Shown piece after piece: positions 15,941 through 22,471 of a DNA stretch of 50,717 nucleotides. The notes under the pieces are model-generated. The model was not told where the DNA came from, searched no databases, and saw only the letters and a list, made by a program, of their open reading frames with translations. A program made the translations under genes and the position numbers. The stretch's first letter is position 1. The number at the start of each line of letters is the position of its first letter. The DNA is from Candidatus Merdicola faecigallinarum (GTDB taxonomy: Bacteria; Bacillota; Clostridia; TANB77; CAG-508), in assembly GCA_018714565.1 (NCBI GenBank), contig DVNH01000015.1:1-50717 (forward strand), read 5' to 3'.

Positions 15941-16597
15941 ATGACAAAAAAAGAAAGGAGAAAATCGTATCATATAGAGGAATGTATACGAGCAAAGCAA
16001 ATGAATCGAAAAGAATTAGAAAAAATAAAAGAAAAAGCATTGGAGGATCATATTCCTATTATTATGGATGAAACGTTAGAAGTAATTGACGAATTATTAG
16101 AAGGAAAAAAATTAAATCGAATTTTAGAAATTGGAACTGCTGTTGGATATTCTGCTATTTGTTTTTCTAAATATTTAGAAGATGATGGAATGATTGATAC
16201 AATAGAAAGAGATCCCGATCGTGTGAAAGAAGCAAGAAAAAATATAAAGAAGGCAGAAGTGGAACAACAAATTCAAATTTATGAAGGAGATGCAGTAGAA
16301 ATCTTACCTACATTAAATCAAACTTATGATTTAGTCTTTATTGATGCAGCAAAAGGAAAATACCCATTCTTTTTGATGCAAGCGAAAAGAATGCTAAAAG
16401 AAAAAGGAATTATTCTAGCAGACAATATTTTATATAAGGGATATGTGTTAAGTGACTATAATAAACACAAGCAAAGAACCGCAGTAAGAAATTTAAGAGA
16501 ATATATTAAAGAAACAACAGAAGATCCTGAACTAGATACTAAAATTGTAGAAGTAGGAGATGGCCTAGCTATTAGTAAAAAAATAAATAGCAAATAG
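15941..16597 (+). CDS. trmR: O-methyltransferase, TrmR-like (tRNA 5-hydroxyuridine)
   Basis: An SAM-dependent methyltransferase of the YrrM/TrmR type, which methylates 5-hydroxyuridine at the wobble position of tRNA in Firmicutes. Motif I ILEIGTAVGYSAICF (about residues 59-73), acidic IERD (about 88-91) and VFIDAAKGKY (about 129-138) with the metal/substrate DNILYKGYV are present, as in catechol-O-methyltransferase-like enzymes. The start is uncertain: ATG 15941 has only a weak ribosome binding site, while a good AAGGAG (15955-15960) lies inside the reading frame with no ATG/GTG/TTG at proper distance; AUA at 15974 or ATG 16001 are alternatives. Confidence 0.78.
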   Translation: MTKKERRKSYHIEECIRAKQMNRKELEKIKEKALEDHIPIIMDETLEVIDELLEGKKLNRILEIGTAVGYSAICFSKYLEDDGMIDTIERDPDRVKEARKNIKKAEVEQQIQIYEGDAVEILPTLNQTYDLVFIDAAKGKYPFFLMQAKRMLKEKGIILADNILYKGYVLSDYNKHKQRTAVRNLREYIKETTEDPELDTKIVEVGDGLAISKKINSK

Positions 16598-16658: not shown

Positions 16659-17585
16659 TTATAGGTCTCTTGGATCAAGGCTATATCCTGTTTTATCAGA
16701 TAATTTATCAACAATTTCTTTCGAAAAACCAGGATGTTCTGCAAATTTAGGTTGGAATTTGTGAAAGGTATTTTCGAACATTCCGGCAACATAAAGCTTT
16801 TGATTTTTTCCTGAAAAGTAAATATAATGAGCTAAATCATCTTCTGAAAGATCTTCAACAGAATCTGGAAAAACAAGTTGTTTGCCGTTTCGATGATCGT
16901 GAGAAGCTGGACCAGTTCTTGCTAAGTTATAAGAATGCATAGATTTTGTTTGCCATTCTAAATACCATAAAGGAAATTTTGTACTACCAAAGGTAATATG
17001 CCTTGCAATATATTCGTCGCTTGTATTATAGTCACGATCTCGATCAGCGATATGATAAAGTCCATAATTCTTTTTAAAATAAGGATCATTTGGTAGTGTA
17101 GATAAAAATTCAAACATTTTTTCTGCTATTTTTATTTCGCAAATATCATTTGCAGTTTCATATTGTTCTCTTCGAATTTTTTCAATTAATGCTAAATCTT
17201 CTTTGCGGATTTTATAGTTAGGATCATTTTCCTTCGCTTGTTTATGGGAAAGAATGGCTTCTTCTAAGTTTTGATGTGCTATTTCTCTTCTTTTTAAAAA
17301 GGCAGAAACTCCAAGCGATTCTGGAACATTATCCTTTACATGTAGAATAACGGTTTTTGATCCATAGATATCATAAATGTCTTTGTCTTGAGAAGCTTTT
17401 TTCTTATAACTATTTTTTCCTTTAATTCTTGTTTTATTTTCTGTATCAACACCAGGAAAATTTTTTTCTAATGCTACACAAACATCATAAAAAAATTTAC
17501 ATGTAAAATTGAAATAGTCTACATCAGTGACCATTTCATATTGTTTCATATAACGTTCTAATTTTAAACTTTCTTTAAAATCCAT
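16659..17585 (-). CDS. Divergent RelA/SpoT-fold nucleotidyltransferase-like protein
   Basis: The 308-residue protein shows, in order, the hallmarks of a (p)ppGpp-synthetase-like domain: RIKGKNSYKKK (residues 53-63; compare the basic RVKxxxSIxxK block), DIYG (72-75; compare DIAGxR with the Mg-binding Asp), YIARHITF (192-199; compare YxSLH) and LEWQTKSMH (209-217; compare E-x-Q-x-R-T with the catalytic Glu). Between DIYG and the Tyr/His block lies a roughly 115-residue helical insertion, longer than in small alarmone synthetases. There is no HD hydrolase or TGS/ACT domain. It could make an alarmone, be a toxSAS-type toxin or be inactive. The neighbour on the same strand is a CmpB-like membrane protein, not a recognisable antitoxin. 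The family call rests on motif order only. Confidence 0.6.
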   Translation of the reverse strand: MDFKESLKLERYMKQYEMVTDVDYFNFTCKFFYDVCVALEKNFPGVDTENKTRIKGKNSYKKKASQDKDIYDIYGSKTVILHVKDNVPESLGVSAFLKRREIAHQNLEEAILSHKQAKENDPNYKIRKEDLALIEKIRREQYETANDICEIKIAEKMFEFLSTLPNDPYFKKNYGLYHIADRDRDYNTSDEYIARHITFGSTKFPLWYLEWQTKSMHSYNLARTGPASHDHRNGKQLVFPDSVEDLSEDDLAHYIYFSGKNQKLYVAGMFENTFHKFQPKFAEHPGFSKEIVDKLSDKTGYSLDPRDL

Positions 17586-17640: not shown

Positions 17641-18195
17641 TCATATTAAGTAATGTATACTAGAAAATACTGTATCAACAACTAATATTAATGTAAAAAT
17701 AGTAACTAAATTAATTTGAAACCAAAAAGGAAATTTATTTAAAAATTTAGTTACAATCTTTTTTACAAATGGATGTACATAGTGAATAAATATTAAACCA
17801 GCAATTCCCCAAAAAAAAGTATAAAGAATGCTAATTCTACCGTTTAGATTTAGAAAATCATTTGTATAATCCCACCATTTTGTAGCAAAGATAGCATCTA
17901 AGCCAAAGCCAACAATATATTCAAATACAGAAAAAATAATTGCAGATAGAAGAAATAGTTTTAAAGGTTTATCTTGATAGCTTTGAATAAAAATAAGCAT
18001 GATAATTGCCCCAAAACCATAAATTGGACAAATTGGTCCAAATAAAAATCCTCTATTTGTAAAATGCCCTAATACACAAAATGAATATAAAGTTTCACTT
18101 AACCATCCTATAAAAGAATAAATAAAAAAATATAATAATAATGTTTGTGTTTTTGTTAATTGCTTGCGTACAACTAAACTAGTGCTAGTTTCCAT
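17641..18195 (-). CDS. CmpB-like putative ABC-transporter type IV membrane protein (PF06541)
   Basis: The protein (184 residues from the chosen start) has about five membrane segments and the PF06541 blocks YSFIGWLSETLY, NRGFLFGPICPIYGFGA, FEYIVGFGLDAIF and KWWDYTNDFLNLNGRI. The family is annotated as a putative ABC-transporter type IV, but its function is not established. ATG 18195 is preferred over the longer ORF start at 18255 because AGGGGGA precedes it by 5 nt. A second, longer family member is encoded at 21527. It lies upstream of the RelA/SpoT-like gene on the same strand with a 55-bp gap. Confidence 0.8.
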   Translation of the reverse strand: METSTSLVVRKQLTKTQTLLLYFFIYSFIGWLSETLYSFCVLGHFTNRGFLFGPICPIYGFGAIIMLIFIQSYQDKPLKLFLLSAIIFSVFEYIVGFGLDAIFATKWWDYTNDFLNLNGRISILYTFFWGIAGLIFIHYVHPFVKKIVTKFLNKFPFWFQINLVTIFTLILVVDTVFSSIHYLI

Positions 18196-18434
18196 ACATC
18201 CCCCTATTAATGGATTGTTTTTAGAATACATAATATTATATAAAAAAAAACGCATTTTGTAAATGTTTTCAACGGATTGTAATGAATAAAAGTGAAATAG
18301 TAAAAAGAAAAAAACAGTAAAAAGTATGAAAGAAAATTTTCAAAAATAAAAATCTTAAGAATTGAAAAAAATAATACACAAAAATCAAAAAAGTAGTATA
18401 ATAGGGAAAAAATAAAATAAAGGGGGAAAATAAT

Positions 18435-20943: not shown

Positions 20944-20973
20944 GGATCCAGAGCCTAAGCTTGGATCCTTTTT
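20939..20973. terminator. Bidirectional terminator shared by ABC permease and the convergent orphan gene
   Basis: AAAAAGGATCC (20939-20949) pairs exactly with GGATCCTTTTT (20963-20973). The stem includes the last sense codons of the minus-strand gene, whose stop is at 20955-20957 in the loop. The 5' A-run is the end of repeat copy 1. Confidence 0.9.
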
Positions 20974-21386
20974 ACCATGTAACTACCCAAAACATATTCG
21001 CCACGTACTAGTTCTGGGCGATTAGAAACAGTAGGTAAAAAGTTTCTAAGTTTATGAGCCACTTTGCCAGTTGGAAGAAACAAGTAAAAGTGATAATCTC
21101 GACAAGGTGTCATCATACGGGTAATCAGAATTACCCGATTTGCAGTACATAGATTTGAAATATCCTCATAATCCACTTCTGTTAAAGAAAGATCAAACAG
21201 TTGCAGTTCCTTTTCTAAAATTTCAAGTAGTTCAAAGTCGGGAACATGAGAATCAACCATTGTTCCGATCAAGTCTCCTATGCAATAGTCTTGCCAAATT
21301 CCCAGTGCAAAAGCATGACAGGGAAGTGAGATAGGGCAAGAGATAGAAAAGTTTTCTAGCTGCAGATTCTGTTTCCGTACCTCCAT
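20955..21386 (-). CDS. Orphan protein of unknown function
   Basis: I do not recognise this protein of about 143 residues. It has no signal peptide or membrane segment; Cys residues are frequent (CPISLPCHAF, DYCIGD, NLCTAN, TPCRDYHFYLF). Its base composition is less AT-rich than its neighbours and it uses codons such as CTG, CCC and GGC more often, suggesting recent transfer. AAAGGAGGG precedes both TTG 21392 (3 nt) and ATG 21386 (9 nt); the ATG spacing is better. Its 3' end is embedded in the stem of a bidirectional terminator. Confidence 0.6.
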   Translation of the reverse strand: MEVRKQNLQLENFSISCPISLPCHAFALGIWQDYCIGDLIGTMVDSHVPDFELLEILEKELQLFDLSLTEVDYEDISNLCTANRVILITRMMTPCRDYHFYLFLPTGKVAHKLRNFLPTVSNRPELVRGEYVLGSYMVKRIQA

Positions 21387-21526
21387 ATTCAAAGTCCCTC
21401 CTTTAGAGAATTTAATCTATTATATCATAAAGATTGCAAATCGTAAAATAGAGTCATTGCGTATATAATAAGAATATGATAAGATGATGTCGAATTATGT
21501 CAAAAAACTTTGAGAGAGGAGAAAAA

Positions 21527-22471
21527 ATGGAAAAACTAATTGGCAAAACAAAAGAAAATGAAAAGGAAGAAATAGAAAAGCGAAAAGAAGACAAACAAAC
21601 TGAAAAAATAGAAAAGGATCAAGAAGAAAAAGGAAGAAAAGGCAAGAAGAAAAAGCCTTTTATGATTTTAGGATTTAGTATATGGAGATTAATGGGATAT
21701 TTTATTATTTATAGCATTGCAGGTTTTTTGATCGAAACAGCATTTGGTGCACTTACAAAGGGAGTTATTGAAAGTAGAAAAAGCTTTTTGTATGGTCCGT
21801 TTTGTGGAATTTATGGTATAGGTGCTGTGATTATGATCCTGTTTTTACAGTATTTTAGAAAAAATAATTATACTCTATTTTTCGGAGGATTTGTTATTGG
21901 ATCGATTGTGGAATATTTTGTTAGTTTATTTGGAGAAATGATGCTAGATGTAAAATGGTGGGATTATTCTTCAGTACCATTAAATTTAGGGGGGAGAATT
22001 TGTGTGTTCTTTTCACTATTTTGGGGAATTTTAGCAATCTATTTAATGTCACATTTAAATCCGAAAGTAGATAATTTAATCGAAAAAATGAAACAAAAAT
22101 TAAAGCGAAATACAAAAGTAATTCGAGGAGTTACGTTAGCGGTGACAATTTTATTATTTATTGATTGTGTACTTACAGGATTTGCATTAAAAATGTTTTA
22201 TGTTCGATTAACAACAGAGTACAATCTAGATTTACAAGGAGTAGATAAATATTTGGCCAAATACGAAGAATTATATCAAAAACCAGAGATTAAAAAAGTA
22301 GTTGATAAATATTGGAATGATAAAGTAATGTTAAAAACATTTCCTAATTTAAAAGTGATGGCAAAAGATGGTACCATGATTTATGTAAGCGATGTGCTAA
22401 AGGATATTCAGCCATATTATGTTAGGATCTTTACTCCTAGAGTGCCAGGAGCAGTAATTGAAGGTTCTTAA
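21527..22471 (+). CDS. CmpB-like membrane protein (PF06541), long form
   Basis: The 314-residue protein has a very charged N-terminus (about 45 residues of Glu/Lys), then the PF06541 blocks YSIAGFLIETAFG, SFLYGPFCGIYGIGA, VEYFVSLFGEMML and KWWDYSSVPLNLGGRI across about five membrane segments. It ends in a soluble ~75-residue tail. ATG 21527 is chosen over 21497 because GAGAGGAG precedes it by 5-6 nt. It is a paralog of the gene at 17641 but carries extra N- and C-terminal domains. Function unknown; the family name implies a transporter, without experimental support that I can cite. Confidence 0.8.
   Translation: MEKLIGKTKENEKEEIEKRKEDKQTEKIEKDQEEKGRKGKKKKPFMILGFSIWRLMGYFIIYSIAGFLIETAFGALTKGVIESRKSFLYGPFCGIYGIGAVIMILFLQYFRKNNYTLFFGGFVIGSIVEYFVSLFGEMMLDVKWWDYSSVPLNLGGRICVFFSLFWGILAIYLMSHLNPKVDNLIEKMKQKLKRNTKVIRGVTLAVTILLFIDCVLTGFALKMFYVRLTTEYNLDLQGVDKYLAKYEELYQKPEIKKVVDKYWNDKVMLKTFPNLKVMAKDGTMIYVSDVLKDIQPYYVRIFTPRVPGAVIEGS

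What the first reader, a model, noticed from the sequence alone, without database searches (positions are those of the whole stretch)
16659..17585. Candidate new RelA/SpoT-fold subfamily with a long helical insertion
The motif series RIKGKNSYKK, DIYG, YIARHITF, LEWQTKSMH reproduces the order of basic, Asp, Tyr/His and Glu motifs of alarmone synthetases, but about 115 residues separate the Asp and Tyr/His blocks, and the flanking TGPASHDHRNG segment is unusual. No HD domain is present. It could be a distinct alarmone synthetase, a tRNA-pyrophosphorylating toxin, or a repurposed fold.
Basis: inference. Interest (0 to 1): 0.6.

Follow-up and report, generated by a model that had tools for sequence, protein, structure and literature searches.

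The report
Divergent small alarmone-synthetase-like protein with insertion
The gene encodes an odd, fast-evolving cousin of the bacterial enzymes that make the starvation signal ppGpp, with an extra helical stretch pushed into the catalytic core; it belongs to a group of such cousins seen here in only one family of small-genome Clostridia, and what it makes is still unknown.

Summary
Alone the protein matches nothing useful in Pfam, NCBIfam, PADLOC, PHROGs or PDB sequences, but two independent profiles place it with the RelA/SpoT synthetases: one from ~270-aa PF04607 proteins in the same slot of sister species, one from a 418-455-aa family ('f440') of the same bacterial family. Internal spacings of the active-site residues equal those of FaRel2 (R53.K55...S59...K63; D72..G75.K77; Y192; E210.Q212). 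TGPASHDHRNG is the RelA/SpoT GxAxH motif plus a clade motif (R..GK). About 60 extra residues, predicted helical, lie between the Asp and Tyr/His blocks; relatives have inserts there or earlier. The clade was found in one taxonomic family only, on chromosomes at conserved loci, not in the phage or plasmid collections searched. No antitoxin-like partner was seen, so the toxin reading is disfavoured. Structure prediction was low-confidence (pLDDT 48-51) and fold searches found nothing, so the fold is inferred from sequence. Best reading: a divergent, lineage-restricted small alarmone synthetase, probably still a pyrophosphotransferase; product unknown. New variant of a known kind.

The parts
16659..17585 (-). 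Divergent RelA/SpoT synthetase-domain protein, 308 aa
17593..17598 (-). ribosome-binding site AGAGGG, 7 nt before the ATG
   Evidence: sequence
17397..17429 (-). motif 1, R53.K55...S59...K63 (ATP ribose/triphosphate site; same spacing as FaRel2 R64.K66...S70...K74)
   Evidence: PMC11782079
17355..17372 (-). motif 2, D72..G75.K77 (Mg2+ Asp; FaRel2 D90..G93.R95)
   Evidence: PMC11782079
17052..17324 (-). stretch between motifs 2 and 3 (about residues 88-178) that holds the extra residues; two long helices predicted at about 94-120 and 128-161, the best part of low-confidence models
16998..17012 (-). motif 3, G-loop Y192.A.H196; the NG before Tyr is replaced by DE
16941..16958 (-). motif 4, E210.Q212.K214 S215 (FaRel2 E145.Q147)
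   Evidence: PMC11782079
16866..16913 (-). motif 5, G225.A.H229 followed by the clade motif R232..K235....P240
16613..16652 (.). inverted repeat between the two convergent genes, probable shared terminator
15941..16597 (+). O-methyltransferase (PF01596), conserved left neighbour of the slot
17641..18255 (-). PF06541 membrane protein, conserved right neighbour, 55 bp upstream, same strand

Best explanation
It is a fast-evolving, chromosomal small alarmone synthetase-like enzyme: a lone RelA/SpoT synthetase domain with an N-terminal helical part, a helical insertion between the donor-site strands and the G-loop, and a lineage-specific C-terminal region. It most likely binds ATP-Mg through R53, K55, S59, K63, D72 and Q212, stacks an acceptor purine on Y192, and moves pyrophosphate to its 3'-OH, with E210 in the site. 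The insertion is most likely a regulatory or docking element, as the equivalent place varies in length between relatives. Shown here: homology, motif and spacing conservation, chromosomal and lineage-restricted distribution. Inferred: the fold, catalysis, a (p)ppGpp-type product, and the role of the insertion.
For: Genus slot proteins are PF04607 members over the cut-off, and their profile finds RelP, YwaC and Rel structures (6ewz 2.4e-11, 7oiw 3.7e-12). The profile of six of them finds the window protein at 1.5e-11 (database of three sequences), and a 10-row version finds residues 1-100 at 1.8e-12 (Z=1000). A 21-row f440 profile built without the window protein finds it at 6e-25 (Z=1000). f440 against the slot family by hhalign: probability 95.6, E 1e-8. 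Several f440-like members have sub-threshold PF04607 matches (L031 4.7e-5, L035 2.2e-4, L018 3.6e-4). R71, K73, S74, S77, K81, D234, N317, G318, Y319, H323, E337 and Q339 are invariant across 12 aligned f440 members, and all but S74 and NG are kept in the window protein. R-to-D spacing of 19 equals that of the slot family (19); Y-to-E is 18, the value of nearly all f440-like relatives and 17 in FaRel2 (PMC11782079).
Against: No direct hit to any family library or PDB sequence. Structure models have pLDDT 48 and 51, with no Foldseek match at E<=0.001. The G-loop NG is lost and the Arg of DxxGxR is Lys, so activity could be reduced or lost. No close orthologue in 13 sister genomes, so selection on the active site could not be measured.
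Confidence: 0.62

Rival explanations
1. A repurposed or dying synthetase fold: binds a nucleotide or partner but no longer transfers pyrophosphate.
For: Long end branch (1.03), NG to DE in the G-loop and S to G after K55, present in one of 14 genus genomes in this form; the genome also has Rel and a canonical SAS.
Against: The main donor-site residues and Asp, Tyr, His, Glu and Gln remain with native spacing; the frame is intact with native codon usage.
Confidence: 0.22
2. A toxSAS: toxin of a toxin-antitoxin or phage-defence pair that pyrophosphorylates the tRNA CCA end or makes (pp)pApp.
For: The motif arrangement matches FaRel2 residue by residue, as it would any SAS (PMC11782079).
Against: Slot fixed between housekeeping genes and filled by an SAS-like gene in 10 of 13 sister genomes; no small partner ORF; PF06541 remains without the SAS in G002; no PADLOC hit; the window protein gave no match in plasmids or viral contigs and f440 none in phage records or viral contigs; f440 is near-universal in one genus (25 of 27).
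Confidence: 0.1
3. Chance resemblance of motifs in an unrelated protein.
For: No direct library hit; failed fold search.
Against: 0 of 200,000 shuffles; two profile links; same genomic slot as clear PF04607 proteins.
Confidence: 0.03

Closest known systems
Slot neighbours in the same genus (unnamed PF04607 SAS, ~270 aa, e.g. L003)
   Same: same genomic slot, R-to-D spacing 19, closest N-terminal half
   Different: canonical KDYI..PK.NGYSSLH loop, no insertion (D-to-Y 57 against 120), and outside the window's group in the core tree (AU p 0.04, borderline)
f440 family (418-455 aa, L002, L005, L016 and others; delimited here)
   Same: YxAxH loop, ExQxKS, GxAxH..R..K....P, C-terminal region, extra length between Asp and Tyr
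   Different: a further ~130-residue insert between motif 1 and the Asp, and an intact NGY loop
L035 (341 aa, genus g42)
   Same: same lay-out: ordinary R-to-D distance (27), D-to-Y 127
   Different: keeps DYLGFR and NGY; little overall identity
FaRel2 / CapRel / Tas1 toxSAS, RelP, RelQ
   Same: donor and acceptor residues with equal internal spacing (PMC11782079)
   Different: no such long insertion in the FaRel2 spacing; toxSAS partners and ppGpp function not shown for this protein

Membership tests
RelA/SpoT synthetase domain (PF04607) | profile score above the curated cut-off (27 bits) | tested here: not met
   0 Pfam hits for the window protein; sister-slot proteins pass
RelA/SpoT synthetase superfamily (by homology, wider than Pfam) | detectable homology to accepted members | tested here: met
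   chain of profiles
RelA/SpoT synthetase superfamily (by homology, wider than Pfam) | donor-site R.K...S...K, D..G.[RK], E.Q | tested here: met
   against FaRel2 residues
RelA/SpoT synthetase superfamily (by homology, wider than Pfam) | G-loop with NGY...H | tested here: inconclusive
   Tyr and His kept, NG replaced by DE
RelA/SpoT synthetase superfamily (by homology, wider than Pfam) | synthetase fold, Asp and Glu in one site | tested here: inconclusive
   low-confidence models, no fold match
RelA/SpoT synthetase superfamily (by homology, wider than Pfam) | pyrophosphate transfer from ATP | not testable with these tools
   needs an assay
long RSH (Rel, RelA, SpoT) | HD hydrolase plus TGS/ACT domains | tested here: not met
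   no other Pfam domain, 308 aa; the genome's Rel is elsewhere
toxSAS toxin-antitoxin | adjacent antitoxin or fused antitoxin domain | tested here: not met
toxSAS toxin-antitoxin | toxicity / tRNA or (pp)pApp product | not testable with these tools
   needs expression and assay

The most novel reading that the evidence does not exclude
A lineage-specific clade of pyrophosphotransferases in which helical insertions either side of the catalytic Asp re-aim the RelA/SpoT core at a new acceptor or bind it to a dedicated regulator; in one genus the gene stands divergently beside the spore-coat cotJABC operon, hinting at a developmental or oxidative-stress role.
Probability: 0.2. Interest if true: 0.75.

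Novelty: new variant of a known kind. Interest (0 to 1): 0.45.

Why it matters
Small Clostridia genomes (1.2-2.0 Mb) of this genus carry up to six PF04607 proteins above the Pfam cut-off, and the lineage has further divergent members that Pfam, NCBIfam and PADLOC miss. If these make alarmones, stringent-response gene counts from standard annotation are too low in this group, and the inserts are natural experiments on how the synthetase core is controlled.

Tried and rejected
Direct searches of Pfam, NCBIfam, PADLOC, PHROGs and PDB sequences with the window protein: nothing useful. Searches of viral contigs, phage and plasmid records for the window protein or f440: none. Two AlphaFold2 runs with shallow permitted alignments (3 and 5 rows; the second holds Rel fragments, so it is partly circular) and two Foldseek runs: inconclusive. 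Loci from the genome search were not handed to the predictor because its stated rule does not list them. A profile of f440 alone does not reach RelA/SpoT sequences in the PDB. PF06541 as a partner or antitoxin: rejected, it remains in G002 where the slot holds a HAD-like gene. Simple orthology with the slot family: neither shown nor clearly excluded (AU p 0.0425, 93 columns, long branches).

Full report
WHAT IS THERE. The ORF 16659-17585 on the minus strand encodes 308 aa. It has the codon usage of its neighbours, an AGAGGG ribosome-binding site, and an inverted repeat that probably ends both it and the convergent O-methyltransferase gene. Upstream on the same strand, 55 bp away, is a PF06541 membrane protein. 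None of 200,000 shuffles of the protein reproduced them.

HOMOLOGY. The protein alone hits nothing useful in Pfam, NCBIfam, PADLOC, PHROGs or the PDB. A search of related genomes brought two kinds of relatives. (a) In sister species the same slot, between the O-methyltransferase and PF06541 genes, holds a ~270-aa protein that passes the PF04607 cut-off; the slot is filled by such a gene in 10 of 13 sister genomes, once as a fragment at a contig edge, and by other genes in G002, G006 and G009. (b) In other genera of the family there are 418-455-aa proteins ('f440'). Profiles of (a) and (b), both built without the window protein, find it: (a) at 1.8e-12 for the first 100 residues, (b) at 6e-25 overall (Z=1000). 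A profile of (a) with two related proteins finds solved RelP, YwaC and Rel. f440 links to (a) by hhalign (E 1e-8), and several f440-like proteins have sub-threshold PF04607 matches. The homology to RelA/SpoT synthetases is therefore shown by a chain of profiles, not by a direct hit.

ANATOMY. FaRel2 contacts ATP with R64, K66, S70, K74, R77, D90 (Mg2+), G93, R95, E145 and Q147, and the acceptor with Y128 (PMC11782079). The window protein has R53.K55...S59...K63, D72..G75.K77, Y192 and E210.Q212: identical spacing inside each motif, and Y-to-E 18 against 17. The counterpart of R77 is not basic (Q66), the Arg of DxxGxR is Lys, and the NG before the G-loop Tyr is DE. R-to-D is 19, as in the slot family; D-to-Y is 120 against 57 in the slot family, 44 in a canonical SAS of the genus, 73-88 in f440, 127 in L035, 110 in L066 and 226 in L040. 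f440 has, besides this, about 130 extra residues between motif 1 and the Asp. So length change on either side of the Asp is a recurrent feature of this lineage's synthetases. Both models put two long helices at about 94-120 and 128-161, the best-predicted part of models that are otherwise poor. The 'TGPASHDHRNG' stretch is the family GxAxH motif with a clade motif R..K....P.

RELATIONSHIPS AND DISTRIBUTION. In a 93-column core tree the window protein falls with f440, L002, L031 and L035 (branch 94/93), apart from the slot family and canonical SAS; holding it with the genus slot proteins is only borderline rejected (p-AU 0.04) and long branches are present. Whether the window gene is a fast-diverged orthologue or a replacement in the slot is open. 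f440-like matches were found in 32 of 290 genomes of the order, all in the same family, and in 2 of 391 of the class, both in that family. In genus g19, f440 is in 25 of 27 genomes, and in 13 of the 20 loci that were read it lies next to a divergent cotJA gene, usually followed by cotJB and cotJC (PF11007, PF12652, PF05067). No match was found for the window protein in viral contigs or plasmids, nor for f440 in viral contigs or phage records.

HOW IT MOST LIKELY WORKS. I take it for a small alarmone synthetase-like pyrophosphotransferase with the insertion as a control or docking element. Activity is inferred from kept residues; the changed G-loop leaves room for a repurposed or inactive protein. 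The toxin reading is weak because the gene sits in a conserved slot with no partner, among housekeeping genes. The genome also carries Rel and a canonical SAS, so this is a third synthetase-type gene there.

KNOWN OR NEW. Atkinson et al. 2011 (PMC3153485) list 12 SAS subgroups and leave unplaced ones as divRel; I did not place the window protein in their tree, and found no paper describing this clade in the library searched. It is a new variant of a known kind.

Noticed in passing
L131-L145 (genus g19 loci): f440 genes lie next to a divergent cotJA (usually followed by cotJB and cotJC) at 13 of 20 loci read; a possible functional link to spore coat or oxidative stress.
   Followed up: partly
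G001, G004, G005 and other genus genomes (L043-L086): Up to six PF04607 proteins per 1.5-2 Mb genome, including ~173-aa, ~155-aa and ~330-aa paralogue families.
   Followed up: partly
L036, L040, L041: RelA/SpoT-like proteins of 505-665 aa with still larger insertions, found by the window's profile.
   Followed up: no
window 17641-18255 and 21497-22471: Two PF06541 (CmpB-like) membrane proteins within 4 kb on opposite strands.
   Followed up: no
window 20955-21392 (-): 145-aa ORF with no Pfam match.
   Followed up: no
L088, L095, L097: In G002 the slot holds a HAD-like gene (judged by its LIFDVDGTL motif); in G006 and G009 a sortase-like gene (judged by eye) follows the O-methyltransferase.
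   Followed up: partly
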